This document shows positions 21,857-37,267 of a stretch of DNA of 54,628 nucleotides, piece after piece. The stretch lies in IMG/VR virus record IMGVR_UViG_3300010885_045154, positions 1 to 54,628 of that record; one strand, 5' to 3'. Source of the stretch: a virus. Numbering within the stretch: position 1 is the stretch's first letter; every line of letters starts with the position of its first letter. The notes under the pieces were generated by a model. It did no database searches. It saw only the letters and a list, made by a program, of their open reading frames with translations, and was not told where the DNA came from. A program made the position numbers and the translations under genes.

Positions 21857-24800
21857 TTATTTGCCTACAACTCTCATACCTGGTCTACCCATTGAAGCAT
21901 TATTTCTAGCATCTATTACTTTTATTTCCGCCAAAACTTGTCGTGTTGCCATATTTGCAATTGCCTGCTCATCCATTCCTGGAGCGGCATTAATTACTGG
22001 TGAAATATTATATGAAACTGAAGGTGGGGAATATGACTGTGCATTAGGATTAAATGGATTCATGTTTGCAGGAACTACTGCTTCATTCTTATGAAGCATT
22101 GCTAACATGTTTGCAGGCACCATATTAATACCCTTTTCAAATTTAGGTATGTTATGTTGCGACACTAATCCGCCACTTGCTTTATAGAATGGTGTCCATC
22201 CTGGAGGTGTATGTTGACCTAGAACTTCAAATACATATTCGTCTATTAATTTTGTAAGTGTTGAGGGGGATCCATCAAATCCAGGAACAGAATAATTATA
22301 TTTATTTTTATTTATTGCCTTAAGTACATACTCTGTCCATGGTGCTATAAGCCCTTCGCCAGCATTGGGATCAAGATTCCAGCCTGCGCCTTGTGCAATT
22401 CCTCTTAGATCTAAGATTCCTTTAGATTCTGGTGTGAATTCAAATCTTGCTATTGCCGAAGTTCCACCTCCACCAGTTCCAGAATTTATAGCCACATGTT
22501 TTGCAAAATCTAAACTATCTGTGATAGATTTATGCATTTGTGGAATCCAAGATTCTCCAATTTTAAGAGCTGGATCTTTTTCTAAAAATTGCCAAGATTC
22601 GGGAGACAATCTACCTGGTAACCCACCATATAGAGCGCTATCTGGTACATGTGCTGGTACATCTGGATGTCTTGTAGCTCCTGGTGGTATTTCTTCTAAT
22701 ACTCCTGGCCTCCATCTTGATCCGTAGAGATTACCCCATGGGGTTTCTACTAATGAACTGGACCCATGCTGTTTCATCCATGGTAGCCCTAGTGTCATGT
22801 CAGCTATATTTGGCCTTGTACTCCAACCAGTAATCTCGGCCATATCTTTCATGCTTAATGCTCTATAAAATGGCATTGTAGTAAAAGCTGATGATCTGGA
22901 TGTTGCAGATGCGATGGCACTAAAATCATTTCCTTGTGCATACATAGGCTTTTGAATAAAAAGGTCTAGCGCACCAAAGAATCCTGGTGGGACATCTGTT
23001 GCTTTAGCTCTTGCTATGTTCTCAGTATATCTTGCTACAGCCGCCTCTAGGTGCTCAATTGATGAATCTTTATAAGCTGGATTAGCCCATGTATGTTTTT
23101 CAAAGTATGCACCACTACGAAGATCATCTATTTCTTGTATAGTTTTTGCTAATTGATCTTCCATTTCTTTAATTGATTTAAGTGTATCTTCTGATAATTT
23201 TTTAGGTCCAGGCATTTGAGCATGAACTGTTGTTTTAGGAACAGGGACTAATTTCCCTGCGGCAGAAGACCCAAAGTTTTTCAAGAAGGCTGGGGCTTTA
23301 GAGCTAAGGGCTTTTATTCCTCCAAATGCGCCCTTTGCTGCATTTTTATATAATCCAGATCCTATAAAACTTGAAGCAATGGTTGTGTAATCATTCCACT
23401 TACCATTTCCAGCTCCAATGTTAGTGGCAGCATCAAACATTGGTTTTACAAGCCATGATCCAAGCTTGAATGCAGGGTTGACTTTGTGCATCATATCCCA
23501 TGCAATAGCCATCTGCTCACGCATGTATTTAGATTTTTCTGTCTGCTTATTTACATCTGGAGCTTTTGATGGTGTTAAAGGAGTCATTGCAAAATTAAAC
23601 ATATCTCCTAGCTGTCTTGAGAAAGATGTTGCTTCTTGTGAATCAGCTATAAATTTTGGATCTCCCGCAATTCCAGTTGCTGGGGAGAATAATGATGAAG
23701 TTGAACCAACACTTGAAGGAATGTTAAATGGACTTACTCCAGATGTCGGCTCTACTAACCTAGGTAGGTACTGTGAGTTTGCGTACCCGCTTTTGATCAG
23801 CTTGGTGCGTAATGCCATTATTTCTTTAGCAGAAGTACTCATTGGTGTTGGCGAATATGATGTTGATGGGTGCTTGTGACCTATTGGTCCGCCATCATGA
23901 TATCCTGGAATTTTTCCGCCCATATTCATATAATGAGGAACGGATGAAGATATAAGAGAAGAAGGATTTATATATCCGCCTTGACTATATCCTTTAGCCC
24001 TATCTAAGTTATTATCAATTATGTATTGCTTAAACTGTTGAAATTGTAAGGAATTTAAGATTTCATCTTGATTCTTTCTTGCTGGTGGTCTAAATTTTGT
24101 AAGACCTTCTGCCCACATACTATAAATATTTTTTGTTTTTTCGGGCATATTTGGAGAGTTTTCTACAAGACCCTTTAGAAAGAATGGATTAAGTCTTATG
24201 GGGCTTGCCAAAGCATTTCTTTGATATTCTTTATAGCTTTTAAAATATCCTCTTAAAATATCTGTGCTAAACCCTGGACCGTATGGATTTCCAATTGTTA
24301 ATGCTAGCTTTTTGTCTTTTGGACTTTTACTAGTTATAAATTTTTGATATGCTTTAAAAGTGCTTTCTTCGGCAAAAGCTTCTGCTGTGCCACCAAAATA
24401 AGCAATAGAATCATGATCTCTTAAATCAAGCGCCTTCTGTGCCCAGGATTCATACCCAAAACCTTTTTGTTTATTTTCTCCTGTTACAAAAATTGATTCG
24501 TATTCATCTGCTAAATCTGTTTTACCAGATTCTCTTAACCTTGCAAGTGTTTTTTTAAAAGAGTCATGAAGAACATCTACATCAAAATGGTGCATTGTTT
24601 CGTGTACTGCAGTGCTACCAGATGTTTTAATCTTTGATTGAAGCAAAATATACGGTAGCAAATTAGTACCAGCTTCGTCTCCAAACCTTGGTATATATTG
24701 TCCTGCGTGATTAGGTGGCAATGCCGCTGTTTTAATTGCTGGTAATTTTACATCTCCCAATACACTAGATAAAAACGTTTCAATGTTTTCAGGCTCTACG

Positions 24801-27800
24801 GTTCTGCCTGTATTTTTGGCTACTCTAAAAGACGGAAGCTTAAACTTTGATAAATTTTTTGTAATCCAGCCTAATGCAGTTTTAATAACTGATCCTCCGC
24901 CCGCAAGCATAAGCGGTCCAAGTCCGTATGCTCCCATGCCAATTCCACCCGTAGAGGCTCCAGAACCTGCAAGAAGCATTGGATCCTTATCTACACCCAT
25001 TCCCAAGCCAGTAGATTTTTTTGGCTGCTCTTGCATTTGATGCCAGTAGTCTGATTGCTGTGGTGTCTTTCCAGTAAACTTAAGTCCTGGAATTTCTGTT
25101 CCGCCCCAGATATCATGTCCAGGTGAAGGATTATATCTTAATTCTCCCCATCTTCCAGTGCGTGGATTACCAGTTGGCTTTCCATTGCTCCAGTAGTTTG
25201 GTAGGTCTGAACGCCATGGGAAAAATGGAAGTTGCTGGCGAGAACTATGCTTGTGTCCTGCTGGTCCGCCCTTGTGGTATCCTGGAATAAGTCCGCCCAT
25301 TGCTTTACGAATAGGAATATCTTTACTCTCAAAATTATAAAAATCTGTGATATATCTTAGTTGTTCTGTATCACCTTTACTAACAAATTTAGGGGGGGTT
25401 AATCCTGGGATTCCAAATGGAAACATTACATTGAATGGATTTTTTGCGTGGCCAAAGAACATGCTATTGTCAAACGGTGGTTCATAATTTTGTTGATAGT
25501 CGCCAATACCTAATGAATGCAAAATTTCATGACTAATTGTTTGGATACCATTTGATCTACCAATGCTCCCCAAATTTAAATAAAATGGAGATCTTAAATC
25601 AACGTATCTGGATCCAGTTACTGCAGTGCCAGCAACTTGACTATCTTCTTCTTTATATAATTCGTTCCAATTTAGCTTAACAACTTCTGGATTATTTCTC
25701 ATTCCAAATGTTGCTCTCTTAAATTGAACTCCAGTCTGCCCTGTTAAATACTTAAGTGCTCCATCAACAATTGGCCTACGATCTTTTGCGTCATATCTAT
25801 CTGCCACATCATAAACGTATATTGATTCTCTTTCTGGGTTAACAGTTGCTTTTTGCATCCATTCTGCGCCGTCACCAGAAACCTTTACAAATTTGCCTAT
25901 ATCCTTATTCTTCCGATAAGAATCAATCTTACTAAGAACATCCAAGCCAAAACCAGCTGCTCCAAATGGGCTTATTGCAGAATTTAAAATCCTGTTAAAT
26001 ACGCTTCCTCCGTCAAAGTACCCTGGAATCATTCCGCCATTTTTCATATAATAAGGAATTGAAGGTGTTATAAGTGCTGAAGTATTTACTGGTCCGCCAT
26101 TTGCAAATTTTCCAGCATTTAGTTTCTCAAATGTCTCTGTTCCGTATTTTTTAACTGAGGAGGCTCTTATTACATACTCTCCATCTGAAAGCATTGCTGG
26201 AATAGAATCAGATGTTGAGGTTCCTGGTCCTGTAACATTTCCACCTGGCATAAAGTTTTTAATCATACCGCCTGCTGCAAATACTCTCTCTACGATATAG
26301 TCGCCATCCTCTTGCACACCAACAACTTTAAATCTACGTCCAGCGTAGTCTATAAATGTTTTCTTCTCTTTTACTGGATTCTCACCCTGAACATACATTC
26401 CAGAATCAACATACTGCTGTGGAGTTATCGTATATGTAGCTTTTGGACCCATAGCACTTTTTTCAGTTGTTAATTTAGGGGTAAAGCTTGTTGTTGAATC
26501 GGCAGTTTGACCAGCAGCAAGTGCTTTTATATACTTGCTTAGCTCTGTATCCTCAACTTGTAACTTGCCAGCTACTACTGAGAAAGAGCTGGCGCCCAAA
26601 GATTCAAGTGAACCAAATCCCATTGCCTGAGCTCTTCCAACATAAGGACCAGTAGGAGACATTTGTAGATATTTGTTTGATAGATTAACAAACTCTTCTA
26701 TTCCGCTATTACTTAATTGCTTTGCTATATCTGCAATTATTAACTTTTCATCAGCTGTTACTCCGCCCATTCCAAGTGTGACAGCCTGAAAGAATAAGTC
26801 ATAAAGACCTTGCATATCAGCCTTCTTAGCCTGTTGAGAACCTGCAGCAGCAATTTGTTTTTCCAAGGATTTAGACAGCCCATCTAATGCGTCAGTTAAA
26901 TTATTTATCAAATCTTGCTGTTTTTTAATGTCCTTATCTGCTTTAGAATCAATTGCAGTTTTAGCAAGATCTAGCTGTCTTGCACCAGTCATTGACTGTA
27001 TATCTAATTGTGCTTGTGCCGCTGTCGCCATATCTCCAGAAGCTAGGGCTTCTGAGTATTCTATTTGCTTTTTTTGAATTTGTAGTAGAAAATCTTCCGC
27101 CTCTGTTTCTTGCTCCAGAGCTTTCTTTTTGGCATCAGCCTCATCTTTAATTCTTTGAATATTTTTTTGTCTTAGTTCTATTTCTTTTTGAATACTTTCT
27201 TTTGTTCTGTTAGCATTTTTAATTAATTGATTAGCAGTAATATTTCCAGTTTTTGCAATTAAATCTGCGGCAGAACTAATTAAAGAATCATTTGAGCTTA
27301 GATAATTTTTCTGTTGTTCTAGTAATAATGATATCGCTGTTGCTGTTTCTGTAGACATATCTTTTAGGTTAAATGTTATGCCAGATACAGAAAGTTTAAT
27401 TTTTGCCCATATACCAGCAAGTGTGTCTGTGGAACTAATTACATCTCTTAGCCCCTCATTTTGTGCAAGTATCTCTTCCAACCCTTTTTCGCCTATTGCT
27501 TGATTGGCAGTTGTAGATATTTGACCCAATACTTTCTCATATGCCTCTGATGAAGTTAAAGCTTTTTTGGTCTTATCATCTACTTTGATAAACGACTGTT
27601 GTAAATTATCCAAAGCGTTAACTGCAGTTTGTAATGCAATTGGAAGCTGATCAAAATTGCCTTCTTTTATAACGTTAGAGAATGTTTTTACAGTTGCATT
27701 TGTTGCAGATACTTTGCCTTGTATTTTACCAAATCCTCTGTCGCCCAATATGTCTAGTGCATACGCAGACTTGTTAGAATTCATAATCATTGCTAATATA

Positions 27801-30800
27801 ATTTCATTAGCTTCTTCTACTGATTTGCCAGCAGCCACCATTCCTGCCTTTAAATTGGCGGCTCTTTCTATGGCTTCCTTATTTGTGACTTTATCAAACA
27901 TTTTAATTTCATCTGGGAAATTTTTTGCTACTTCTTTTTTAAGCTTTTCTAACTCTGGAACTGTTATATCAATTCCTTTGCCTTCCGCTTTTGTTTGACT
28001 ATATCTATTTGCAGCTGCTTTAGCGAGCATTAAATCATATTTTTGTTGATAGCTATCTATTTCAGAACCAAGCTTTTTATATTGAAGTCCTAATTTTTTA
28101 GCAGACTCCTCAGATATTCCAAACCCAGAACTTACTATTCTTCTATGCTCTTCAATTTTGTCGTTCATTGTTTTTATTGCTAGTCCAACTCCAACAACTA
28201 CGGCTAATAGTTTTACTGGTCCTGGTAGTTTTATAAAAAATTGAAAAGCTTTAGATAGAAGAGAGGTTTTAGTGGCTGCCCCTCCTGCTGCCTTTCCTGC
28301 TTCTGATAAATGATTAGTAAGTTTTATAATAGCTGCATCGGCTGCTGCTCCTCCTGCAAATCCGCCTAGAATGCTTCCAAACTGGTTGCCTCCAGTTAAA
28401 CTGCTTCCTAGCATAGATCCAAGTTGCCAACCGCCTATTGATCCGCCCATTCTTGCAGCACCCATTAGAAGTCCTTTACCGCCTGACTTCTGTGTGGCTT
28501 CGGGAACTGAAACAGATCCAGAAGGGAGTTGTCCAGAAGGAAGTTGTCCAGTAGCCCTCATTTGATCTGCAAGGGTTCGATATCCTGTTGCTTGTTCAAA
28601 TTGAGATGCAGTTATTGGAGTTCCAGTTGTTGGGCCTACTGGGAAAAACGAATCATTATATCCTCTAGCCACTATTTCTGATGGGCTTCCTATCATGCCA
28701 CCCATATTGTATCCAGGAATCATTCCGCCAGAATTACGTCTCATAAATCGGCTAGATAAAGCTCTTTCCATTACTTCTTTTATAAATAGGTTTTTACTGG
28801 TCATTCTTTCTATTAATGGCCTTGGAACTGATGAGTGTAGGAATGCTGTTCCTAGTTTTCTTGAGCCCCTTAATCTGCCCATGTCTACAACTACACCAGA
28901 GGGTGTTTTAAATTTAAGAGAAAGCGCTGTTGTGCTTCTTCTTCCAGCGCCAGTGTGATGTGTAATAGCTTTAGAAAAATCTGACCAAACTGAAAGAGCG
29001 TCGGCATTTCCTGCTAGCCTGCTCAAAATTATTCTATTAGATACTGCCCAGAATGGGTTTCTTCTATCTGAAATTCCTTCTATTCTGCCACGAACTACTT
29101 GAGAATATTTAGAATGTATTTCATCAGATATTGAAGCTGCTTCTGCTGCAGATATAACTCCGCTTCTTGCCAATGACTGAAGTAGTTGTTCGGTAGAACT
29201 TCTTGTTCCGCCAGCCTTAGCAGCAGCATCAATAGAGGCCAACATTACTTCTCCAGGTAGACCCCTGGATCCTGGAGCAGCCAATGCTGCGTTTATTTGT
29301 TCAATTCCTATAAATCCAGTTTTGGGATCAACTAGCTTTGGATATTTTGCTATTATTGCTGGATCTGTTATTACGCCATTATAAGTTCCGCTGCCGCCCT
29401 TTGCACGATAAGCAGGCAGACTTCCTTTAAAACCAGGATTAAGAATCCTCATTTCTTCGTTTGTAAGATTTACTCCAGCAGCAATATCTCTGTCTGCACC
29501 ATCATTATATCTTGGTCCTCTAGAACCTCTTCCGTTTATTGCTTGAAGCAATGGGAGGTTTGCTTGGGTGGCTCTTCTATTTACAACGAATTCTCCTGGC
29601 GTAAGAAGCGCTGGAACAACATCTTTGTCTACACTTGGGCCTGGAACTATTGGAGATGAACTTCCTCCGCTAAGATAAGCTAATCCTCCAGAATTTCTTC
29701 TAATAGGAATAGTTGTGTGTGTTGAATATCCTGCTCCCCATGTTCTAACGCCCATAAGTCTTGCGAGTTCATCTACAAATGATCTGGTTTTTCCTTTTTT
29801 AAATAGCTCTCGCATATTTGACTTACCAGTTCTTGGATCTACAACTGGTTGATCTAATGTAGGCACTCCAGTAATAACTGCGGTTCTTCCAAGTGAGGTG
29901 GCTGTTCCTATAGTTGCTTGAGCCATTAATTGCTCAACTTGAATGTTTAATGCAATAATTCTTTGTCTTGCTGTTTGAACAGATATAGTTCCAGCTTTTG
30001 CTTCAGCAACAATGATAGCTGATTGTTGTGCAGCATTTTCTGCAATCGATGTCATCTGCGGAAGAAGTGAGCCAAAAGCCTGAGTAAATTCTGATGTCAC
30101 TGTTCCAGTTGTTCTTATTTGAGTCTTCATCTGAGAAACTTCGGTCTTTGTCATCATTGATAGCGTTCCTACCATTGTATGCCACTTAGCTGCCTCTGAT
30201 GCTACAACGCCAGTTGATACTGCTCCCGATCTTCCTGGAATTGTTGTTAGGCCAGGTACTGCTGGCAAATCTCCTGCTGCAAATATTTGTGGGTTTGCAC
30301 CAACTGCTTGATTAACTGGTATTGGAGCTGGTAAGAAACTGTGAATTGTTTGAGCAGCACGTTGTTCTGGAGTCATTCCAGATCTTGGTACCATGTGTGC
30401 GCTTGCACGTGTGCCAGCTGGACCGACTAGAGGATTTTTTGGATCAACTACTCTACCTACTCCACCACCACCGCCACCGTCGTCGCCTGGCGGCCTTATT
30501 ATATTTCCAGCAACAGTTGAAAGCATTGGCTGCACAGAAACAACTCCTTGAGTCATCTTTGACTGAATAGAGGTCATTCCAGCAGATAAAACTTGAAGTG
30601 CTTCTGCTAAAGCTAATGCTGCTTTTGCGTCGCTATAAAATGTTTTTTCTATTAAGCTTCCAGCTTTTTGTGCTGCAAGTATTTCTGGAGTAAGCATTCT
30701 CCAGCCTTCTCCGCCTTTAAATAATGCTTTGAGGTGAAATGCGCCTTTTATTACATATCCCAGGAAGTTTGCAAGTACACCAGTAAGCATAATCAAAGGT

Positions 30801-32449
30801 CCAGTGACTGCTGTTAGGCCAGCCAAGAATGTTAATATTGTTTTAACTGGTGCTGGTAATTTATTTACAAACTGAATAATTCCATCTACAAGATTAATAA
30901 AGAATGTTGAAACCTTTAAAAATTCTTCTCCGACTCCCGCTAAGTCTGCCTTTAATCCTTCTACAGCTCTTCTGTATTTACCAGAAGCAGATTCTGTAAC
31001 CATACTTAATTCTCGACCTGCAATTGATGCTAGATCTTTAGAGCTTGCTTTCATAAGGTCCATAACCTTAAGCGTCTGGCTTCCTTGTGCACCTAAATTT
31101 TCAAATAATGCAGATAGTCTGGCAAACTGGAACTTACCGAAAAGCTGTTCAATCGCCTGAGACTTTTGCAAGGGGTCTAATTTATTTAATGCTCCTTGTA
31201 AAGCAAAGAGTGTCTTTGTAACATCTCCAGCATTGTTATTCACAATACCCATCAAATCTATTCCAAAGCCCTCAAACTTTTTGACTGCAACGTCAGTAGG
31301 GTTAATTAAAGATGCTAAAGCAGATTTTATTGCATTTGCTCCTTCTGAAGCATTAATTCCACCCTCTTTCATTGCTGTAAGATAAAGTGCTAAATCTTGT
31401 ATGTTTCCACCCAGACCTTTAATAATTGGACCAGCTTTTGGAATAGCTTCTACCAAATCACTAAGGCTTGTAGAGGTCTGGTTTTCTACGGCGTTTAAAA
31501 AGTTAATTGATTTTGCAAGCTCGTCCGTGTCTTGTCTAAATGCGGACTGAATTGCAAGGGTTGCCTTCATAGCATCTTGTCTATCTACTTCACCAAGTAC
31601 TGCAAGACGTGTGGTTTCTCTAATTGAACCCAGTAACTCTGAACCCTGTTTACCAGTTGCGGCTATATCGGCAGAAAGAGCCAGGGTCTCTTTAAAAGAA
31701 GATCCATATCCTCTAGCTAATTCATCTGCAACAGCAGTTACATCTCTTCTTACTTTCTGAAGCTCTGAAGAAGATGTTGCGGCTAATCCACCGTAAACTT
31801 TTGTTAGCCTTGTTAATTCTTGATCTGCTTCTCTAAATGCTTTTGCTGCTGCTGCTCCAAATGCTACAATTGGAACAGTTAATCCTACAGTTAATTGGCG
31901 ACCAGCCCATTGAGTATTTTTACCCCAATTAATAAGGCCTACAGAACCTTCTTGCATAACCTTATTAAGGATTTGCATTTCTTGTCTAGCAATTGCACCT
32001 TTATTTTTTATCTCGTCCAAGCCTTGTGGGACATGAACATTAAATTGCATAAGCCCTTGTGCATTTCTGCCCAAGGGTTGCAATATAGCATTTTGTAATT
32101 GAACCTGCTGCCTAGCAAGGTCTCTTATAAGCCCGCCTGATGTTCTTGTATGAGTTTGAAGTGTGGAAAAATAATCTCTTAGCTTAAGCTTTCCGCCTTC
32201 TAATCTTTTTCCAAATATATCAACATCATTTGCTAAAGAAACAAAGTGGGTTGAGAACTGGCCTGTTGATCTTAGGGTTTCTCCAAAGCTTCTATTGACA
32301 GCATTTATCTGTGCAGAAAGTACTTTGTTAGAGGAACCAATTTGCTGTTGCATTGCAGCAAGGGAGGTAGTAACTTTTCGTACATTTGCGATAAGGTCAG
32401 AAAAATCAGCCCGAGCAACTATATTAGTTACGACTTGATCATCGGCCAT
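21857..32449 (-). CDS. Tail tape measure protein, 3530 residues, with embedded enzyme-like domains
   Basis: Sets tail length and probably travels into the cell during DNA ejection. The N-terminus has a coiled-coil start and a TP901-type core (NWGKNTQWAGRQLTVGLTVP near residue 175; KAFREADQELTRLTKVYGG). Hydrophobic segments occur near 535-580 and 1415. PALLTPGEFVV (about 950) and SIPAMLSDGEYVI (about 2085) are typical tape-measure motifs. Unusual cargo follows: HEILHSLGIGD at 2307-2317 with a Met-turn-like NVMFPFG (metzincin pattern); HETMH at 2616-2620 with a downstream YFGGTAEAFAEES (gluzincin, ATLF-like pattern); and R3196, S3312 region, E3373 in an arrangement like ADP-ribosyltransferases. 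IPGY-type Gly-rich linkers separate these blocks. GGGAG precedes the ATG. Tape-measure identity is firm; domain roles are inference. Confidence 0.93.
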   Translation of the reverse strand: MADDQVVTNIVARADFSDLIANVRKVTTSLAAMQQQIGSSNKVLSAQINAVNRSFGETLRSTGQFSTHFVSLANDVDIFGKRLEGGKLKLRDYFSTLQTHTRTSGGLIRDLARQQVQLQNAILQPLGRNAQGLMQFNVHVPQGLDEIKNKGAIARQEMQILNKVMQEGSVGLINWGKNTQWAGRQLTVGLTVPIVAFGAAAAKAFREADQELTRLTKVYGGLAATSSSELQKVRRDVTAVADELARGYGSSFKETLALSADIAATGKQGSELLGSIRETTRLAVLGEVDRQDAMKATLAIQSAFRQDTDELAKSINFLNAVENQTSTSLSDLVEAIPKAGPIIKGLGGNIQDLALYLTAMKEGGINASEGANAIKSALASLINPTDVAVKKFEGFGIDLMGIVNNNAGDVTKTLFALQGALNKLDPLQKSQAIEQLFGKFQFARLSALFENLGAQGSQTLKVMDLMKASSKDLASIAGRELSMVTESASGKYRRAVEGLKADLAGVGEEFLKVSTFFINLVDGIIQFVNKLPAPVKTILTFLAGLTAVTGPLIMLTGVLANFLGYVIKGAFHLKALFKGGEGWRMLTPEILAAQKAGSLIEKTFYSDAKAALALAEALQVLSAGMTSIQSKMTQGVVSVQPMLSTVAGNIIRPPGDDGGGGGGVGRVVDPKNPLVGPAGTRASAHMVPRSGMTPEQRAAQTIHSFLPAPIPVNQAVGANPQIFAAGDLPAVPGLTTIPGRSGAVSTGVVASEAAKWHTMVGTLSMMTKTEVSQMKTQIRTTGTVTSEFTQAFGSLLPQMTSIAENAAQQSAIIVAEAKAGTISVQTARQRIIALNIQVEQLMAQATIGTATSLGRTAVITGVPTLDQPVVDPRTGKSNMRELFKKGKTRSFVDELARLMGVRTWGAGYSTHTTIPIRRNSGGLAYLSGGSSSPIVPGPSVDKDVVPALLTPGEFVVNRRATQANLPLLQAINGRGSRGPRYNDGADRDIAAGVNLTNEEMRILNPGFKGSLPAYRAKGGSGTYNGVITDPAIIAKYPKLVDPKTGFIGIEQINAALAAPGSRGLPGEVMLASIDAAAKAGGTRSSTEQLLQSLARSGVISAAEAASISDEIHSKYSQVVRGRIEGISDRRNPFWAVSNRIILSRLAGNADALSVWSDFSKAITHHTGAGRRSTTALSLKFKTPSGVVVDMGRLRGSRKLGTAFLHSSVPRPLIERMTSKNLFIKEVMERALSSRFMRRNSGGMIPGYNMGGMIGSPSEIVARGYNDSFFPVGPTTGTPITASQFEQATGYRTLADQMRATGQLPSGQLPSGSVSVPEATQKSGGKGLLMGAARMGGSIGGWQLGSMLGSSLTGGNQFGSILGGFAGGAAADAAIIKLTNHLSEAGKAAGGAATKTSLLSKAFQFFIKLPGPVKLLAVVVGVGLAIKTMNDKIEEHRRIVSSGFGISEESAKKLGLQYKKLGSEIDSYQQKYDLMLAKAAANRYSQTKAEGKGIDITVPELEKLKKEVAKNFPDEIKMFDKVTNKEAIERAANLKAGMVAAGKSVEEANEIILAMIMNSNKSAYALDILGDRGFGKIQGKVSATNATVKTFSNVIKEGNFDQLPIALQTAVNALDNLQQSFIKVDDKTKKALTSSEAYEKVLGQISTTANQAIGEKGLEEILAQNEGLRDVISSTDTLAGIWAKIKLSVSGITFNLKDMSTETATAISLLLEQQKNYLSSNDSLISSAADLIAKTGNITANQLIKNANRTKESIQKEIELRQKNIQRIKDEADAKKKALEQETEAEDFLLQIQKKQIEYSEALASGDMATAAQAQLDIQSMTGARQLDLAKTAIDSKADKDIKKQQDLINNLTDALDGLSKSLEKQIAAAGSQQAKKADMQGLYDLFFQAVTLGMGGVTADEKLIIADIAKQLSNSGIEEFVNLSNKYLQMSPTGPYVGRAQAMGFGSLESLGASSFSVVAGKLQVEDTELSKYIKALAAGQTADSTTSFTPKLTTEKSAMGPKATYTITPQQYVDSGMYVQGENPVKEKKTFIDYAGRRFKVVGVQEDGDYIVERVFAAGGMIKNFMPGGNVTGPGTSTSDSIPAMLSDGEYVIRASSVKKYGTETFEKLNAGKFANGGPVNTSALITPSIPYYMKNGGMIPGYFDGGSVFNRILNSAISPFGAAGFGLDVLSKIDSYRKNKDIGKFVKVSGDGAEWMQKATVNPERESIYVYDVADRYDAKDRRPIVDGALKYLTGQTGVQFKRATFGMRNNPEVVKLNWNELYKEEDSQVAGTAVTGSRYVDLRSPFYLNLGSIGRSNGIQTISHEILHSLGIGDYQQNYEPPFDNSMFFGHAKNPFNVMFPFGIPGLTPPKFVSKGDTEQLRYITDFYNFESKDIPIRKAMGGLIPGYHKGGPAGHKHSSRQQLPFFPWRSDLPNYWSNGKPTGNPRTGRWGELRYNPSPGHDIWGGTEIPGLKFTGKTPQQSDYWHQMQEQPKKSTGLGMGVDKDPMLLAGSGASTGGIGMGAYGLGPLMLAGGGSVIKTALGWITKNLSKFKLPSFRVAKNTGRTVEPENIETFLSSVLGDVKLPAIKTAALPPNHAGQYIPRFGDEAGTNLLPYILLQSKIKTSGSTAVHETMHHFDVDVLHDSFKKTLARLRESGKTDLADEYESIFVTGENKQKGFGYESWAQKALDLRDHDSIAYFGGTAEAFAEESTFKAYQKFITSKSPKDKKLALTIGNPYGPGFSTDILRGYFKSYKEYQRNALASPIRLNPFFLKGLVENSPNMPEKTKNIYSMWAEGLTKFRPPARKNQDEILNSLQFQQFKQYIIDNNLDRAKGYSQGGYINPSSLISSSVPHYMNMGGKIPGYHDGGPIGHKHPSTSYSPTPMSTSAKEIMALRTKLIKSGYANSQYLPRLVEPTSGVSPFNIPSSVGSTSSLFSPATGIAGDPKFIADSQEATSFSRQLGDMFNFAMTPLTPSKAPDVNKQTEKSKYMREQMAIAWDMMHKVNPAFKLGSWLVKPMFDAATNIGAGNGKWNDYTTIASSFIGSGLYKNAAKGAFGGIKALSSKAPAFLKNFGSSAAGKLVPVPKTTVHAQMPGPKKLSEDTLKSIKEMEDQLAKTIQEIDDLRSGAYFEKHTWANPAYKDSSIEHLEAAVARYTENIARAKATDVPPGFFGALDLFIQKPMYAQGNDFSAIASATSRSSAFTTMPFYRALSMKDMAEITGWSTRPNIADMTLGLPWMKQHGSSSLVETPWGNLYGSRWRPGVLEEIPPGATRHPDVPAHVPDSALYGGLPGRLSPESWQFLEKDPALKIGESWIPQMHKSITDSLDFAKHVAINSGTGGGGTSAIARFEFTPESKGILDLRGIAQGAGWNLDPNAGEGLIAPWTEYVLKAINKNKYNYSVPGFDGSPSTLTKLIDEYVFEVLGQHTPPGWTPFYKASGGLVSQHNIPKFEKGINMVPANMLAMLHKNEAVVPANMNPFNPNAQSYSPPSVSYNISPVINAAPGMDEQAIANMATRQVLAEIKVIDARNNASMGRPGMRVVGK
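23862..28735. repeat. Four dispersed IPGY linker repeats inside the tape measure gene
   Basis: Related sequences encode GG-[MLK]-IPGY-x-x-GG at about 28696-28735, 26005-26045, 25245-25300 and 23862-23930. The last two extend into GGP-[AI]-GHKH. They bracket the two zinc-protease segments, so they mark boundaries of inserted domains and could serve as sites of homologous domain exchange. Confidence 0.7.
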
Positions 32450-32452
32450 TTA

Positions 32453-33111
32453 TCACTCCCTAAAGTATCCCAGACCTTCTCCAATACCAAATCCAGCTTG
32501 CGCTGCAAAGGAACCTTGTAATGAAACTACATCATCTCCTGATGCATCTATTCCAAGTGCCTTTCTTTGTATATCATCAAAGGTGGTAACCTTTTCTTGT
32601 ACTTCATCATTTAAGTCTATGCCTTGTATCGAAGCCAAGAACTTTCTTTTTTCCGATTCATTTTTTTGCATTGCCTTAAAAGTCTGGATTAATTCCGCCA
32701 TTGAAAGATTTTCTTCTAGCTCTTCGTAATTTTTCCAATTACCTAAAAGAAAAACTTCCCCTTCTAATGACGCAAGATCTAGATCTGACCAGCCAGAGCC
32801 GCTTGCGCTAGAAGGTTTGGGTCGTCCATCTTAATTCCGCCGCAAACTTCTAGGATTCGGTTAATTGTCGGTACGTCAAGTACATCTTCAAATGCATCTC
32901 TGTCTGCTACCAATTCTGGCAGCTGCTTCTCTAATGCAACTGCACATGCATCAATTAAGATATCTAAAGTTTCGTCTTCAGTTTTTACTTCAGCTGTCTT
33001 CTGAATTACTTCCATAAACTTGCGTAGTTCTTTAATTGTTAGCGGCTTCAACTTTACTGTTGCGCCATTTTGTAGCTTAATTTCTTCTACGTCGTAGACT
33101 GTAGTTGCCAT
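32453..33111 (-). CDS. Tail assembly chaperone, -1 frameshift fusion (GT-like)
   Basis: Second, longer tail chaperone made by programmed -1 frameshifting, as in lambda gpGT. Ribosomes read the first 99 codons from 33111, slip at CCCAAAC (32821-32815) and continue in the -1 frame (PSSASGSGWSDLDL...) to 32453, giving about 219 residues. The second part includes LEGEVFLLGNWKNYEELEENL and AELIQTFKAMQKNESEKRKF and has no start of its own in a natural position: the ATG at 32701 lies inside this continuous frame. The fusion would bind the tape measure, encoded 3 bases downstream, and the tail tube protein during tail assembly. Confidence 0.85.
32779..33111 (-). CDS. Tail assembly chaperone, unshifted product (G-like)
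   Basis: A 110-residue acidic, helical protein (MATTVYDVEEIKLQNGATVKLKPLTIKELRKFMEVI...). It lies between the major tail protein and tape measure genes, where siphoviruses encode the G-like chaperone, and carries the frameshift site 11 codons before its stop. AAGGAGG lies 5 bases before the ATG, and an extended -10 promoter is upstream. It would coat the tape measure during tail polymerisation and is normally absent from the finished virion. Confidence 0.85.
   Translation of the reverse strand: MATTVYDVEEIKLQNGATVKLKPLTIKELRKFMEVIQKTAEVKTEDETLDILIDACAVALEKQLPELVADRDAFEDVLDVPTINRILEVCGGIKMDDPNLLAQAALAGQI
32815..32821 (-). promoter_or_regulatory. -1 ribosomal frameshift slippery heptamer
   Basis: CCCAAAC on the minus strand, in the zero-frame phase C-CCA-AAC, which fits the X-XXY-YYZ rule exactly. 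The zero frame stops 11 codons later and the -1 frame is open to 32453. The next 30 bases are GC-richer (AGCGCAAGCGGCTCTGGCT) and may fold as the stimulatory structure. Confidence 0.85.
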
Positions 33112-33139
33112 TTTATCCTCCTTGGATAGTGTCTATATG

Positions 33140-33148
33140 ATTATAGCA
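33140..33148 (-). promoter_or_regulatory. Extended -10 promoter for chaperones and tape measure
   Basis: TGC-TATAAT on the minus strand in the gap after the tail-tube gene, with TTGTAT 17 bases upstream as a weak -35. It follows directly after the hairpin at 33171-33198, so tail-tube transcripts would end and new transcripts begin here. Confidence 0.55.
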
Positions 33149-33170
33149 AAAAGGTTTTACTAATACAAAC

Positions 33171-33198
33171 GGAAAGCCCCCATTTCTGGAGGCTTTCC
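33171..33198 (-). terminator. Terminator hairpin after the major tail protein gene
   Basis: GGAAAGCC...GGCTTTCC, a perfect 8-bp stem with extra inner pairs after one mismatch, 16 bases beyond the tail-tube stop. The T tract is weak (CTTTCCGTTTG), so it may be a partial terminator or an RNA 3'-end protector. Confidence 0.55.
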
Positions 33199-33213
33199 TT
33201 AATTTAAATTAAA

Positions 33214-33966
33214 TTATGCTGTTGCTGTAAGAATGCGGTCAATAATCTTTCCATATTCCTGTCCAGCATATGCTGACTCTCCTGATGGGAGAAGTCTGAA
33301 TGTTACTGGGAATGTGGTTGGGTTATTACGTGCAAGTGAGAATTGTGACTGTTGTACAGACAATACTCTACGTGCATAGTATACACGCTCAGCACGAACA
33401 ATCTTAGCATTTGATCCTGTTGGACCTTCGCCGACTGCAATAAGCTGACGCTCAACTGGTGCTACACCAAGTGCTCCTGCTGCAAGACCGAGTGTCTTGA
33501 GACCAGCATTTGTTGGTGACTCCTGTGAGTAAGTTGCATTTGTTGTAAGTGTATTAGTTGCTGTGATTGGTGTTGAGTGTGTATTTGTTCCACCCTGACC
33601 GAATACTGCTAGAGTGTTCTCTAGTGTTCCTTCTGCCATTTCTGTTGCAATCATAACTTCCATTGACTCCTTGAAAAGCTTAGCTGTATCAAGAAGCTGA
33701 TCTACTGTTACTGAACCGTATGTTGGGTTGTAAGTAATCTGAAGACCGTTGTTTGTGTAACCTACGTTACGGTACAATGCTGTAGAGATATCTACTGCAT
33801 TAAGTGTATCTGTAAAAGATACTCCTGCACTAAATGCTACGCCTGTTGAAGCGTTAGGCTCCATGTTTTCTACGTAACCTGACTGTGTTGAATCTTTTAC
33901 TGAAAGAAATAGTGGTGAAGCACCGACTAGAATATTCTTTGCATTACCTGTGGCTTGTGTTGCCAT
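33214..33966 (-). CDS. Major tail (tube) protein
   Basis: A 250-residue protein forming the hexameric rings of the non-contractile tail tube. Its size, its beta-rich sequence, and its place between the tail terminator and the chaperone/tape measure genes support this. Segments such as SFTDTLNAVDISTALYRNVGYTNNG, KLFKESMEVMIATEMAEGTLE and FPVTFRLLPSGES match the tail-tube architecture. It has AGGAGG as ribosome binding site, its own -35/-10 promoter, and a hairpin after the stop, consistent with a highly expressed protein. Confidence 0.85.
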   Translation of the reverse strand: MATQATGNAKNILVGASPLFLSVKDSTQSGYVENMEPNASTGVAFSAGVSFTDTLNAVDISTALYRNVGYTNNGLQITYNPTYGSVTVDQLLDTAKLFKESMEVMIATEMAEGTLENTLAVFGQGGTNTHSTPITATNTLTTNATYSQESPTNAGLKTLGLAAGALGVAPVERQLIAVGEGPTGSNAKIVRAERVYYARRVLSVQQSQFSLARNNPTTFPVTFRLLPSGESAYAGQEYGKIIDRILTATA

Positions 33967-34041
33967 AGTTTAAACCTCCTATAAAAATTATTTTATTAAA
34001 TTGTAAAATTTTGGCTGGCTAGGCCCTTTCCTCTAGGTCTA

Positions 34042-34070
34042 ATAATACGGCATTATTGGATATAAGGCAA
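34042..34070 (-). promoter_or_regulatory. Promoter for the major tail protein
   Basis: Minus strand TTGCCT (34070-34065), 17-base spacer, TATTAT (34047-34042), in the 105-base gap after the tail terminator gene. -35 matches four of six and -10 five of six consensus bases. The rest of the gap is AT-rich leader before AGGAGG. Confidence 0.5.
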
Positions 34071-34071
34071 A

Positions 34072-34581
34072 CTAAAGGTACCGTCCACTTTTATCTAAAA
34101 TTCTACTATATTTAATCTCTAATATTACATCTGAAGACAAGAAGCCTAGCTGCTCTTTCGACGGTGTTGTTGGGGATATGTCGGCTATATATGTATTGTA
34201 AAATTTAAATTGAGGCGTAGACTGAGCTGAAGTATTAATGTCCCTAGCAGAATTATCCATTCTTCTAAATAGATCTACCATAAAGTTTGTGATTTCATTA
34301 ATATCAGCCACATCTGTTGCATATATGGTAAACAATATTTGTTCATTGCAGATCATCCAATTATCTTCATAGGTTAAGCTTATCTTATCATAGACAATAT
34401 GCTTCTTCCCGCTCAAGAACTGATTAAATTCGGCAGGCTGTTGAACTGGGACAATAGGAATTAATATATTCCCAGTGCCAGAAGTATCATAGTTATTGGG
34501 GTCAAATATATTGGCATCCTGTAATTCCTGCCATAAGTACTTTCTTAGATCTAACATTGCATCTAATTTATAATTTACCAT
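34072..34581 (-). CDS. Tail terminator protein
   Basis: A 169-residue protein in the position of siphovirus tail terminators, directly upstream of the tail tube gene. The sequence is alpha/beta: an N-terminal helix (LDLRKYLWQELQDANIFD), several strands (EQILFTIYATDVADINEITNFMVDLFRRMD, a strand plus helix typical of gpU/tail-completion folds), and a final strand (SSDVILEIKYSR). It would cap the tail tube and join it to the neck. It overlaps the preceding gene by one base. Confidence 0.65.
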   Translation of the reverse strand: MVNYKLDAMLDLRKYLWQELQDANIFDPNNYDTSGTGNILIPIVPVQQPAEFNQFLSGKKHIVYDKISLTYEDNWMICNEQILFTIYATDVADINEITNFMVDLFRRMDNSARDINTSAQSTPQFKFYNTYIADISPTTPSKEQLGFLSSDVILEIKYSRILDKSGRYL

Positions 34582-35369
34582 TATGCTAATCCTCCAAATG
34601 CATTCTCTATTGCCTGTTTTGCTTCCGCCCTTAACATTTTACCAGAAAATACATATTTTACTTTCCTGACTTCTCTTGGCACTCTTAATACGTCTTTCAT
34701 CTTATATGTAAATATTTTTTGAAATCCAGACTTTTTAATAGACAGGCTAACTAAATTGCTTGTAAAAAATCTTTTGTATGCTGTCTCAAAGGACTGCTTT
34801 GCAGCCACTCCACCAGGCTTTGTAATGGTCACAGAGGCCCCTTTGGGCATGAAGACAGTGTATCCTAACCCTGAATCAAAAACTAGTCTCTCAGCAAAAC
34901 GTGGGGATACTACAACGGTTATTCCTTTTTCCATTATTTCAGCTTTATTTTTAAATACGTTTTTTCTTTTTGAATATTTATTTGGAACAGCAGTCCTAGA
35001 TTGATTAAATTTATATGAGACTCCAAACCCTAGTTCTCCGCTATCTATTTTCTTTAGATTAAATAGTCTTGCTTCTTTGATTCCAGTTTTTTGCCACTCA
35101 TAAACATGGTGCAAGCTTTTTGGCTTTGTTCTAGCCTGAGCATCAATATAGCTACCAAAGTCCTCATTTATTTGATCAAAGATTACTTTATTAAACTTGA
35201 CCTTAAATGATTTACTTGTTGTTAGTTCTGACATAACCATAGACTTATAATAAATAACTGCAGATACCTGAGCTACAAGGGTTTCCTGAATTGGGTACTT
35301 AGAACTTGGCTTAGATCCGACTGTTTCTAAAGTAGCTGCTGCTGCAACTAATAATTCGCTAGACGCCAA
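34581..35369 (-). CDS. Neck / minor head-tail protein
   Basis: A 262-residue basic protein between the head-closure and tail-terminator genes. It contains HHVYEWQKTGIKEARLF and SVSYKFNQSRTAVP, reminiscent of HK97 gp10-like neck proteins, but longer. An internal part (MEKGITVVVSPRFAERLVFDSGLGYTVFM) is beta-rich and the C-terminus is a helix (RAEAKQAIENAFGGLA). It overlaps the previous gene by 11 bases. Assigned by gene order; the fold is not certain. Confidence 0.6.
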   Translation of the reverse strand: MASSELLVAAAATLETVGSKPSSKYPIQETLVAQVSAVIYYKSMVMSELTTSKSFKVKFNKVIFDQINEDFGSYIDAQARTKPKSLHHVYEWQKTGIKEARLFNLKKIDSGELGFGVSYKFNQSRTAVPNKYSKRKNVFKNKAEIMEKGITVVVSPRFAERLVFDSGLGYTVFMPKGASVTITKPGGVAAKQSFETAYKRFFTSNLVSLSIKKSGFQKIFTYKMKDVLRVPREVRKVKYVFSGKMLRAEAKQAIENAFGGLA

Positions 35370-35787
35370 TTACCTGGTTCTCCGATCTTTTAACAATTGT
35401 ACTAAATGCGAGAGTGTTTCCAAATGGGTCAGTGATTGGCGTACTTCCAACTACTTCAAATACAGTCGGTGTATCTTCTGGGAAGTTAAGCTCTGTCCAT
35501 ATATAGTTTCCACTGGCATCTCTAATATTAGAAATTTTTTGTCTTAAAGTTAATTTATCGTGTGTTCTAATTTCAAGCATCTGCGTATTCTCGTAGATAT
35601 TTCCGAAGACTTGCCTGTCTCCAGTTCTTGAGGTTGAAGAATTTGATATAAATGCTTTTGCATGACAGTCTACAGTTTTTGTATACTGCCAGCTTTTTTT
35701 AATTAATCCAGTATCTGCATCTTGTAGGTCTGACTGAGTATAAACATCTAGATTCATGCTAAATATAGCATCGACCAAATCGAACAT
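35359..35787 (-). CDS. Head closure / stopper protein
   Basis: A 142-residue beta-rich protein in the head-closure position (after the adaptor, before the neck protein). FDLVDAIFSMNLDVYTQ opens a beta-barrel-like sequence with EIRTHDKLTLRQKISNIRD and VFEVVGSTPITDPFGNTLAFSTIVKRS, typical of SPP1 gp16/HK97-type stopper proteins. It overlaps the adaptor gene by one base and the next gene by 11 bases. Confidence 0.65.
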   Translation of the reverse strand: MFDLVDAIFSMNLDVYTQSDLQDADTGLIKKSWQYTKTVDCHAKAFISNSSTSRTGDRQVFGNIYENTQMLEIRTHDKLTLRQKISNIRDASGNYIWTELNFPEDTPTVFEVVGSTPITDPFGNTLAFSTIVKRSENQVIGV

Positions 35788-36770
35788 TAGATTACTACCA
35801 TTTGAGTAATTACATATGGAAGTAGGATTTGATCTACATATACATTTCCTGTTCCACGGTAAGACTCGCTGCTATATTCAAATTTCCAGTCAAATGACTG
35901 TACGTTTTGAACATATTTGTTTCTCCATGCTCTATCTTTTGAGAAGTAATCTTTAATTAAATAAATAGTTGCTTCTTCTACTTCGTCTGGAATAAAGCTC
36001 CATCCGTATCGTCCTTGAACTTTGTAAACGGAATCTCTTTTAAATGCCCCGCCAAAAGTATCATTGTAGGGAGGAGGGACCATGCCGTTTGCAGAATAAA
36101 CTGTATTGTCCAACATGTTTGCACGATTAACCCTGACGCCAAATCCGCTTTCAGATATTTGAGTATCATATATCCAGTTATTAACATTGTTAATATTATC
36201 TAAAACAAGAACATCGTTTTCGTAAAGCTCGTGAAGAGAATTTATTTTAAATGGAAGCCTTAAAGAATCTGCTCCATCTCCATAGACTATATGTACATCA
36301 TCATATAAATAAAATGTTTGACCAGTATAATTTTCAATTATTTTTCTAGCCCATTTTTCTGCCATTTGAAGTTGATGATAAGTTTTGGAGTTTACATCTC
36401 CTGGATCTGTTCCATATCCCAAATCATCTATAATATCAAACATACTTGCATATGGAGTAACAACATCAATATATGAAAAATGTGATCCGCTCACTGCATT
36501 TATTTGATAACTCCATTGAATTTTAAACTTTTTATTTCTACGAACTAATGATAACGGAAGTATTATTTGATAGGTACCAGCATCAATTTCTGACTTTACC
36601 GCAGTAGCTGTATGTACTGCTACTGTTGAACTTACTAATGGAGATACGGCTGGATCATTAGTAATATCATAAACAGTTGCAGTTACATTTCCATCGGCAT
36701 CAATAATATCTCCGCCATAGAATATTTTTGTTCTAATTGGTGCTGTTTGATCTACATATATCTCTGCCAT
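35787..36770 (-). CDS. Head-tail adaptor protein
   Basis: A 327-residue protein. The first 105 residues are a beta sandwich (DQTAPIRTKIFYGGDIID, ITNDPAVSPLV, KIQWSYQINAVSG). The central part is the helical connector: MFDIIDDLGYGTDP, QLQMAEKWARKIIENYTGQTF, and EEATIYLIKDYFSKDRAWRN, the head-tail adaptor (gp15/gp6-like) pattern of helices that insert into the portal. Located two genes after the capsid. The extra N-terminal beta domain is unusual for a small adaptor and may be exposed on the virion neck. Confidence 0.72.
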   Translation of the reverse strand: MAEIYVDQTAPIRTKIFYGGDIIDADGNVTATVYDITNDPAVSPLVSSTVAVHTATAVKSEIDAGTYQIILPLSLVRRNKKFKIQWSYQINAVSGSHFSYIDVVTPYASMFDIIDDLGYGTDPGDVNSKTYHQLQMAEKWARKIIENYTGQTFYLYDDVHIVYGDGADSLRLPFKINSLHELYENDVLVLDNINNVNNWIYDTQISESGFGVRVNRANMLDNTVYSANGMVPPPYNDTFGGAFKRDSVYKVQGRYGWSFIPDEVEEATIYLIKDYFSKDRAWRNKYVQNVQSFDWKFEYSSESYRGTGNVYVDQILLPYVITQMVVI

Positions 36771-36784
36771 TATTATAGGCTTGT

Positions 36785-37183
36785 TTAGCTATAAAAATCT
36801 TGTGCTTCTCTTGGTGTTGCTAAACGAAAGCCTTCCTCCACATCAAAAATTTTTTGAGCGTCTTCTTCTTTCATTGCTATAAATGGATGATCTTTTGTAA
36901 AAGTATATCCAAGAATGTCATATCTAAAGTTTGCTCTTGTCATTCTAACTAAAACACTGTCTTTTGGTTGATCTTTCTTTGAATCAAATTTTGGAAGTAC
37001 TTCATCTGACTCTACTTCGGATTCTTCAAGAACTTCAATTGTCTTTGCATAAACAGAATATGTGACGCCTTCTTCTGAAAGTGCTGCAATTAAGTCTGCC
37101 TTGTTTTTTAGTCCTTCTGTATCGACTGCAAAATCTTCTGCAATCTTTTTAAGCTCTGCTACTTTTAATGTCTCAAATGACAT
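36785..37183 (-). CDS. SAP/HeH-like domain head protein
   Basis: A 132-residue protein. The first 40 residues (LKVAELKKIAEDFAVDTEGLKNKADLIAALSEEG) match the helix-extended-helix SAP/Rho-N fold found in nucleic-acid-binding proteins and in phage proteins next to the capsid gene. An acidic linker follows, then a domain with VRMTRANFRYDILGYTFTKDHPF, often seen in head-tail region proteins. AAGGAG precedes the ATG, with a separate promoter and the capsid terminator just upstream. Possible DNA-packaging or head-completion role. Confidence 0.68.
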   Translation of the reverse strand: MSFETLKVAELKKIAEDFAVDTEGLKNKADLIAALSEEGVTYSVYAKTIEVLEESEVESDEVLPKFDSKKDQPKDSVLVRMTRANFRYDILGYTFTKDHPFIAMKEEDAQKIFDVEEGFRLATPREAQDFYS

Positions 37184-37210
37184 ATATTTCTCCTTAGTTT
37201 AGGTACATTC

Positions 37211-37239
37211 ATTATATCATTAATAAATTTAAATGAAAA
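37211..37239 (-). promoter_or_regulatory. Promoter for head-tail connector genes
   Basis: Minus strand TTTTCA (37239-37234), 17-base spacer, TATAAT (37216-37211). The -35 box overlaps the 3' T run of the terminator at 37236-37267, so the capsid message ends where the next unit starts. Confidence 0.5.
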
Positions 37240-37267
37240 GCCCCTGAATTAATTTTCAGGGGCTTTT
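37236..37267. terminator. Intrinsic terminator after the major capsid gene
   Basis: A perfect 13-bp stem, AAAAGCCCCTGAA against TTCAGGGGCTTTT, with a 6-base loop (TTAATT). It is symmetrical, with A and T runs on both sides, and so could work in both directions. It lies 22 bases beyond the capsid stop. Confidence 0.85.

What the first reader, a model, noticed from the sequence alone, without database searches (positions are those of the whole stretch)
22300..25990. Tape measure with two zinc-protease motifs and an ADP-ribosyltransferase-like segment
Seen: HEILHSLGIGD with NVMFPFG downstream (residues 2307 onward) fits HExxHxxGxxD metzincins with a Met-turn; HETMH with a later YFGGTAEAFAEES (from 2616) fits ATLF-like gluzincins; R3196, SITDSLDFAKHVA near 3310 and a Glu-rich EYVL end at 3373 recall the R-S-E layout of ADP-ribosyltransferases. 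Known: tape measures can carry peptidoglycan-cutting domains, and toxin-type domains occur in phage virion proteins. Inference: enzyme cargo delivered with the DNA to open the envelope or act in the host. Two zincin types plus a possible ART in one tape measure is a combination I do not recall being described.
Basis: partly seen in the sequence, partly recalled or inferred. Interest (0 to 1): 0.8.

Follow-up and report, generated by a model that had tools for sequence, protein, structure and literature searches.

The report
Phage tape measure carrying swappable enzymes
The giant protein that sets a phage's tail length also carries, in two exchangeable slots, predicted enzyme modules (here two zinc peptidase-like ones and a possible ADP-ribosyltransferase) that its relatives swap for other enzymes, as if the tail were a loadable injector of anti-host tools.

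Summary
Both zinc-peptidase motifs sit in real conserved modules. ZN1 (HEILHSLGIGD...NPFNVMFP) recurs in four other TMPs (three lineages) and ZN2 (HETMHHFD...AEAFAEES) in seven other contigs (three lineages), often at higher identity than the backbone around them. The ADP-ribosyltransferase (ART) call is weaker: one homolog supports S3308 and, less firmly, R3196, but the proposed E3373 is not conserved (E3365 or E3404 fit better). No profile library reaches threshold and both structure predictions failed (mean pLDDT 36 and 30), so no fold is shown.

Comparison with about 60 related TMPs shows something larger. A conserved backbone has two variable cargo slots (residues ~918-1385 and ~2122-3429). 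Relatives fill them with CHAP, LysM and OmpA domains (Pfam), an R-S-ExE ART family, and kinase-, PARP- and GNAT-like modules in many combinations. A phage 84-88% identical in backbone DNA has a completely different slot 1.

Best reading: a 'polyvalent' tape measure delivering an enzyme set with the DNA. Single precedents exist (T5 pb2, P23-45 TMP-RNA polymerase, polyvalent proteins); I found no described two-slot, cassette-swapping tape measure.

The parts
21857..32449 (-). Tape measure protein ORF, 3530 aa (residue a starts at base 32449-3(a-1))
   Evidence: PhageMin_Tail; PHROG TMP families
29699..32449 (-). Conserved N-terminal backbone, residues 1-917
   Evidence: aligns in nearly all relatives; 88% DNA identity to L009 ends at 29699
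28295..29698 (-). Cargo slot 1, residues 918-1385
   Evidence: unmatched in L009 although both sides match at 84-88% DNA identity
28748..29407 (-). Slot-1 module C1, residues 1015-1234, function unknown; invariant D, N, W, H and near-invariant S in 10 aligned sequences
26264..28294 (-). Conserved middle backbone, residues 1386-2062
26087..26263 (-). Hinge module ...GPGTSTSDSIPAMLSDGEYVI..., residues 2063-2121; cargo-free relatives end soon after it
25298..26002 (-). ZN1: metzincin-like module, residues 2150-2384
   Evidence: 54-62% identity to L097-L099, 24-30% to L050
25499..25531 (-). HEILHSLGIGD, residues 2307-2317, predicted zinc site of ZN1
   Evidence: HExxHxL[GN]xx[DE] in all five sequences
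25418..25432 (-). NVMFP, residues 2340-2344, Met-turn candidate
   Evidence: NPFN[VLI]MFP in all homologs
24896..25249 (-). Constant connector 'DYWHQ' module, residues 2401-2518
   Evidence: 62-78% identity in L003, L005, L049, L061
23969..24832 (-). ZN2: gluzincin/ATLF-like module, residues 2540-2827
   Evidence: 55-64% identity to L003, L005, L095
24590..24604 (-). HETMH, residues 2616-2620, predicted zinc site of ZN2
   Evidence: conserved in ZN2 homologs, HENMH in L095
24362..24385 (-). AEAFAEES, residues 2689-2696, candidate third zinc ligand region
   Evidence: AEAFA[DE]E in all ZN2 homologs
22175..22870 (-). ART-like region, residues 3194-3425, with a segment of about 80 residues (3210-3292) not present in L049
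   Evidence: homologous to L049 2980-3140, pairwise E=7e-13
22862..22864 (-). R3196 (YRALS), candidate ART arginine
   Evidence: matches L049 SYRGLS; shuffle p=0.0028 for the 16-residue match
22520..22528 (-). S3308-I-T3310, candidate ART S-x-T motif
   Evidence: SIT conserved in L049
22355..22357 (-). E3365 (GEGLI), better catalytic-Glu candidate than E3373
   Evidence: EGLI conserved in L049; E3373 is Arg there
23871..23923 (.). Linker repeat copy (GGKIPGYHDGGP type), downstream of ZN2
   Evidence: 53-nt direct repeat family D2
25248..25300 (.). Linker repeat copy between ZN1 and the connector/ZN2
   Evidence: 81% identical to copy at 23871
25989..26041 (.). Linker repeat copy upstream of ZN1
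   Evidence: 62% identical to copy at 23871; overlapping 93-nt repeat D3 72%
21860..22162 (-). Conserved C-terminal tail, residues 3430-3530
   Evidence: 52% identity to L005 tail

Best explanation
This is a cassette-loaded ('polyvalent') tape measure protein. A conserved backbone sets tail length and forms the DNA conduit. Two tolerated insertion sites carry effector-type modules separated by repeated Gly-rich linkers. In this phage slot 2 holds a metzincin-like module (ZN1), a gluzincin/ATLF-like module (ZN2) and an ART-like module; slot 1 holds an uncharacterised module (C1). Proposed mechanism (inferred): the protein sits extended in the tail tube and is ejected ahead of or with the DNA, its modules refold, and the peptidases cut envelope proteins or peptidoglycan cross-links and/or cut the chain at linkers to release neighbours. 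Modules that reach the cytoplasm, such as the ART-like one, modify host targets. Modules are exchanged between phages by recombination, perhaps at the linker repeats. Shown here: anatomy, homology, module exchange, conservation under purifying selection. Inferred: zinc binding, catalysis, delivery, targets.
For: Backbone versus slots: relatives align at residues 1-~975 and ~1425-2120, while the rest varies; complete lengths run 2042-3983 aa. Wholesale slot-1 swap against L009, with 84-88% DNA identity on both sides. Modules more conserved than backbone: ZN1 62% versus backbone 42%/24% with L097; ZN2 64% versus 43%/28% with L003. Architecture matrix with reshuffled ZN1, ZN2, ART2, KIN2, PARP-like and GNAT-like modules. 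Pfam hits above cut-off for CHAP, LysM and OmpA in slot 2 of relatives. Invariant R, S, ExE in the ART1 family of slot 1. Sub-threshold but coherent weak hits: Reprolysin_3 (0.05) and Peptidase_M13 (0.21), ADPrib_exo_Tox (0.071, one ART1 member). Crude dN/dS about 0.33-0.44 for ZN1 and ZN2. DNA linker repeats bracket ZN1 and ZN2. Precedents for enzymes in tape measures: P23-45 TMP-RNA polymerase (PMC10770324), T5 pb2 metallopeptidase motif with muralytic activity (PMC10038345).
Against: No curated family matches ZN1, ZN2 or the ART-like region above threshold. No PDB sequence match. AlphaFold2 models unusable. The window ART-like region does not align significantly with the ART1 family. In ZN1 homologs Gly of HExxHxxG is Asn in three and the third ligand is Glu in two, so the canonical metzincin motif is not strict. 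The host is unknown and delivery is untested.
Confidence: 0.68

Rival explanations
1. Envelope-only reading: the zincin modules are cell-wall/periplasm-breaching enzymes of the T5 pb2 or TM4 kind, and the ART-like region and other modules are wall-binding or structural domains; nothing acts in the cytoplasm.
For: Several relatives carry clear peptidoglycan-related domains in slot 2 (CHAP, LysM, OmpA); T5 pb2's metallopeptidase motif is muralytic (PMC10038345).
Against: The same slots hold R-S-ExE ART, kinase-like, PARP-like and GNAT-like modules, whose known relatives use NAD+, ATP or acetyl-CoA, which are cytoplasmic (cofactor needs from general knowledge; module identities rest on motifs).
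Confidence: 0.17
2. Maturation-protease reading: the zincins act mainly on the tape measure itself (or neighbours) during assembly or ejection, as proposed for MPTase domains of polyvalent proteins.
For: Iyer et al. 2017 propose autoprocessing for MPTase domains in large injected proteins (PMC5512222); T5 pb2 is cleaved after R1127; repeated linkers flank ZN1 and ZN2.
Against: Most relatives with cargo lack ZN1 and ZN2, so such processing is not a general need of these tape measures.
Confidence: 0.1
3. Slot modules are catalytically dead or act as binding modules, with motifs retained for fold stability.
For: The ART-like region lacks a conserved E at the proposed place and has an extra segment of about 80 residues; the ZN1 third ligand varies D/E.
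Against: HExxH residues are invariant in ZN1 and ZN2; dN/dS well below 1.
Confidence: 0.04
4. Chance motifs or assembly chimera.
For: Single metagenomic contig; no library match for the modules.
Against: The same modules lie in independent contigs from several metagenomes, in continuous ORFs; two HExxH by shuffling is very rare.
Confidence: 0.01

Closest known systems
Polyvalent proteins of phages and conjugative elements (Iyer et al. 2017, PMC5512222)
   Same: One long polypeptide with unrelated effector modules; zincin-like peptidases, ARTs, kinases, GNATs and wall hydrolases are typical parts.
   Different: Those described are head-packaged (MuF, DarB/DdrB kind) or conjugation proteins; the paper's text has no occurrence of 'tape' or 'TMP'. 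Here the carrier is the tape measure, with two fixed slots.
Thermus phage P23-45 gp96, tape measure fused to a virion RNA polymerase (PMC10770324)
   Same: A giant tape measure (5002 aa) carries an enzyme shown biochemically, plus a metallopeptidase domain; a TMP-borne enzyme thought to act at entry.
   Different: One fixed RNA polymerase at the N terminus; in the passages read, no cassette exchange and no ART or kinase set.
Phage T5 pb2 tape measure (PMC10038345) and mycobacteriophage TM4 TMP
   Same: Peptidase motif in the C-terminal part with muralytic activity, released near the tail tip; TM4 has a peptidoglycan hydrolase motif (cited).
   Different: Single wall-degrading domain; ZN1 and ZN2 are HExxH-type modules that are exchanged between tape measures.
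Sle1-type tape-measure-like effectors of actinobacterial contractile injection systems (PMC13277306)
   Same: Tape-measure-like N-terminal part with diverse functional domains; 'reconfigurable'.
   Different: Effectors of cellular contractile systems with remote TMP similarity; not a phage tape measure with two slots.
Stanwilliamsviridae (Streptomyces) phage tape measures, e.g. Coruscant, 2133 aa
   Same: Closest isolated relatives of the N-terminal backbone, 34-36% identity over ~98% of the query.
   Different: None of the cargo modules was detected in the one examined.

Membership tests
Tail tape measure protein | PhageMin_Tail or TMP profile in the N-terminal part; position among tail genes | tested here: met
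   PF10145 E=4.7e-28; PHROG TMP families; transcribed after portal, head protease and head genes and before minor tail genes
Metzincin (ZN1) | HExxHxxGxx[HD] zinc-binding consensus | tested here: met
   HEILHSLGIGD in the window; homologs vary Gly to Asn and Asp to Glu
Metzincin (ZN1) | Met-turn downstream of the zinc motif | tested here: met
   NPFN[VLI]MFP conserved in all homologs; sequence only
Metzincin (ZN1) | Fold and profile match | tested here: inconclusive
   Reprolysin_3 E=0.24 (window) and 0.05 (one homolog), below cut-off; AlphaFold2 pLDDT 35.7
Gluzincin / ATLF-like (ZN2) | HExxH plus a downstream conserved Glu as third ligand | tested here: met
   HE[TN]MH and AEAFA[DE]E conserved in all homologs; which Glu binds zinc is not known
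Gluzincin / ATLF-like (ZN2) | Profile or fold match to ATLF or another gluzincin family | tested here: inconclusive
   No ATLF hit; Peptidase_M13 at 0.21 in two members of A8, members not identified; model unusable
ADP-ribosyltransferase, R-S-E class (window 3194-3425) | Conserved Arg in the first strand | tested here: inconclusive
   R3196 matches L049 YRGLS (p=0.0028), but a default alignment puts a Gly there
ADP-ribosyltransferase, R-S-E class (window 3194-3425) | S-x-[ST] motif | tested here: met
   SIT in both homologs
   Arg in L049; E3365 and E3404 are conserved instead
ADP-ribosyltransferase, R-S-E class (window 3194-3425) | Profile or fold match | tested here: inconclusive
   No Pfam/NCBIfam/PHROG hit; not significant against ART1; pLDDT 30.3
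ADP-ribosyltransferase, R-S-E class (window 3194-3425) | NAD+-dependent transferase activity | not testable with these tools
   needs purified protein
Polyvalent protein (Iyer et al. 2017) | Several unrelated effector-type domains in one polypeptide | tested here: met
   window: C1, ZN1, ZN2, ART-like; relatives: others; identities rest on motifs and homology
Polyvalent protein (Iyer et al. 2017) | Head-packaged or conjugation-transferred carrier | tested here: not met
   Carrier is a tape measure
Polyvalent protein (Iyer et al. 2017) | Enters the host with the DNA | not testable with these tools
   inferred from tape-measure biology

The most novel reading that the evidence does not exclude
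A large group of aquatic phages uses its tape measure protein as a combinatorial effector-delivery platform: two fixed slots accept interchangeable cassettes (peptidases, ARTs, kinases, acetyltransferases, wall hydrolases) by recombination at repeated linkers, so the tail tube delivers a phage-specific set of enzymes into or through the envelope at the start of infection.
Probability: 0.55. Interest if true: 0.85.

Novelty: new variant of a known kind. Interest (0 to 1): 0.68.

Why it matters
Tape measures are treated mainly as rulers and DNA conduits, with single wall-degrading domains and one known fused RNA polymerase as extras. A backbone with two fixed, swappable enzyme slots would make the tape measure a main route for delivering early host-takeover or counter-defence enzymes in long-tailed phages, a role so far assigned mostly to head-packaged proteins. 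It also gives a natural test of how enzymes pass a narrow tail tube, and a source of unannotated effector families (ZN1, ZN2, ART1, KIN1, C1, RIB).

Tried and rejected
Megablast of the region against phage records: nothing. Pfam, PHROG and NCBIfam on the modules: nothing above cut-off. PDB by sequence and by profile: no meaningful match; the microcompartment-protein (PduA-like) hit for about 3024-3100 (E=0.0045) looks like a low-complexity Gly/Ala match and was set aside. AlphaFold2 on ZN1+ZN2 with seven sequences and on the L049 ART-like domain with two: both too poor, so no fold search was run. Profile-profile comparison of the slot-1 ART family with the window ART-like region: not significant, although R and S motifs fall in register. 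Rejected: E3373 as catalytic residue. tblastn of the modules against phage records: nothing even at E=1. Host assignment: a backbone search in 84,980 genomes found only one hit, in a cyanobacterium-labelled metagenome bin, which may be a mis-binned phage contig; not used. A pre-toxin-like Gly-rich segment before several slot-2 modules was seen, but the model was built mostly from the same sequences and does not pick up the window copy, so it is only a lead.
Full report
What was checked. The window is a 54,628-base IMG/VR virus record. One ORF, 21857-32449 on the minus strand, encodes 3530 residues. It is a tape measure protein: Pfam PhageMin_Tail at 243-438 (E=4.7e-28) and several PHROG tape-measure families. 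In transcription order it follows portal, head protease and head genes and precedes minor tail genes.

Chance and conservation. Shuffling the protein 2000 times gave 0.028 HExxH on average and never two. ZN2 (around HETMH) is present in seven other virus contigs, three lineages, at 54-63% identity; HE[TN]MH, PRF, AEAFA[DE]E and NSPNMP are kept in all. ZN1 (around HEILHSLGIGD) was found in L050 first and then in L097, L098 and L099. HExxHxL, the acidic residue and NPFN[VLI]MFP are kept; the Gly of HExxHxxG is Asn in three, and the acidic residue is Glu in two closely similar ones. Crude counts give dN/dS of about 0.33 (ZN1) and 0.40-0.44 (ZN2).

ART-like region. Residues 3281-3425 are homologous to one other tape measure, L049 (pairwise E=7e-13). 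S-I-T, G-T-x-G-G-x-T-x-A-I-A-R, K-G-I-x-D, E-G-L-I and D-E-Y-V are shared. R3196 is supported by the match FYRALSMKDMAEI / SYRGLSDLDMEAI (shuffle p=0.0028), which needs an extra segment of about 80 residues in the window; a default alignment instead puts LYGGL opposite YRGL, which would mean that the Arg is lost. Two-sequence AlphaFold2 of the L049 domain failed (pLDDT 30.3). I therefore treat 'ART' as plausible, not shown (my estimate about 0.45).

The larger pattern. A search with the N-terminal backbone returned at least 583 related contigs; the 80 best were fetched, which is not a random sample. Aligning the window TMP to these shows a backbone (1-~975, ~1425-2120, and a C-terminal tail) and two variable slots. 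Lengths of complete ones run from 2042 to 3983 aa; about 20 of about 60 sequences longer than 1700 aa carry large slot-2 cargo, related groups included. The closest relative, L009, is 87.9% identical in DNA over 29699-37440 and 84.3% over 26094-28297, but nothing matches between 28298 and 29698: there L009 has an R-S-ExE ART module where the window has C1. Distant backbones share close modules: with L097 the backbone is 42%/24% identical but ZN1 62%; with L003 the backbone is 43%/28% but ZN2 64% and the connector 78%; with L095 41%/28% but ZN2 55%. These two observations, a swap in close relatives and sharing between distant ones, are the main evidence for cassette exchange.

What the cassettes are. 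Above curated cut-offs in slot 2 of relatives: CHAP and LysM (L050, L061), LysM (L049), OmpA (L044). By conserved motifs only: ART1 in slot 1 of 12 loci, with Arg-Gly, R-R-x-S and E-x-E invariant in the nine aligned; KIN1 in 15 loci; KIN2 with GN[LI]...AIDFGRIG in two; a PARP-like module with HG and G-M-G-F-x-x-T-S in five; GNAT-like in L003, L005, L095 (Acetyltransf_1 E=0.031, below cut-off). Combinations: L095 = PARP-like, KIN2, ZN2, GNAT-like; L049 = C1 and ART1 in slot 1, ART2, KIN2, PARP-like in slot 2; L097 = PARP-like and ZN1; window = C1 in slot 1, ZN1, ZN2, ART2 in slot 2. Linkers of the type GG.IPGY..GG flank the modules, and their DNA forms direct repeats that bracket ZN1 and ZN2, a possible substrate for recombination (inference).

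How it may work. Established: tape measures are ejected from the tail and help DNA entry; T5 pb2 has a metallopeptidase motif with muralytic activity, released from the tip (PMC10038345); P23-45 has an RNA polymerase fused to its tape measure, thought to act at entry (PMC10770324). Inference: in this phage slot-2 peptidases near the C-terminal end act in the envelope and/or cut linkers, and NAD-using modules act in the cytoplasm. A tail tube is narrow, so modules would have to refold after ejection; this is discussed for TMP-like effectors (PMC13277306) and was not tested here.

Comparison and novelty. The parts list is that of polyvalent proteins (PMC5512222), in which zincin-like peptidases are the commonest domain; the text of that paper does not mention tape measures, nor does a survey of viral ARTs, which places virion ARTs in heads (PMC9503650). 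Sle1-type effectors of contractile injection systems show the same principle in cells: a tape-measure-like part with variable functional domains. My searches cover open-licence PubMed Central only, so 'not described' means not found there. I rate it a new variant of a known kind: enzyme-carrying tape measures and polyvalent proteins are known; a two-slot, cassette-swapping polyvalent tape measure appears not to be.

Limits. No fold, zinc binding, activity, delivery or host is shown. All profile libraries are silent above threshold for the window's own modules. The sample is biased to close relatives of the backbone, and several loci are near-duplicates.

Noticed in passing
window 28748-29407: Slot-1 module C1 has no library match but invariant D, N, W, H and a near-invariant S over 10 divergent sequences; an unassigned, possibly enzymatic family.
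   Followed up: partly
window 24896-25249: A connector of about 118 residues (SDYWHQMQEQP, DKDPM, GSGAS) is shared at 62-78% identity by tape measures with different cargo and has higher GC (0.48) than its surroundings.
   Followed up: partly
L049 residues 2780-2840 and 3162-3226; L097 1898-1960; L099 2835-2898; L035 2011-2073; window ~2995-3050: A Gly-rich hydrophobic segment (GD..AAL.PL.F.G.G...GK) precedes several slot-2 modules of different kinds, like pre-toxin or glycine-zipper translocation segments.
   Followed up: partly
L049 residues 1290-1580 and 11 other loci (alignment A9): ART1, a family with invariant R-S-ExE in slot 1 of tape measures, not reported by Pfam except one member at E=0.071.
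   Followed up: partly
L036 residues 1320-1640 and 14 other loci (alignment A10): KIN1, a kinase-like family (VFVKP, GDKDL..GN, DVG) in slot 1 of tape measures.
   Followed up: partly
L098/L099 (L098 residues ~1160-1270): An OmpA-like segment (by eye) lies beside ZN1 in a tape measure with a largely different backbone.
   Followed up: no
L065 residue 2666: A third kind of HExxH module (HEFGH) in slot 2 of another tape measure, with a weak DUF4932 match (E=0.028).
   Followed up: no
L101 (CAINGU010000031.1): A cargo-free version of the backbone (1774 aa) lies in a contig of a bin labelled cyanobacterium; the label may be wrong for a phage contig.
   Followed up: no
window 51313-53217: A tail-fibre-like ORF (weak matches to many tail fibre families) lies about 30 kb away from the main tail genes.
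   Followed up: no
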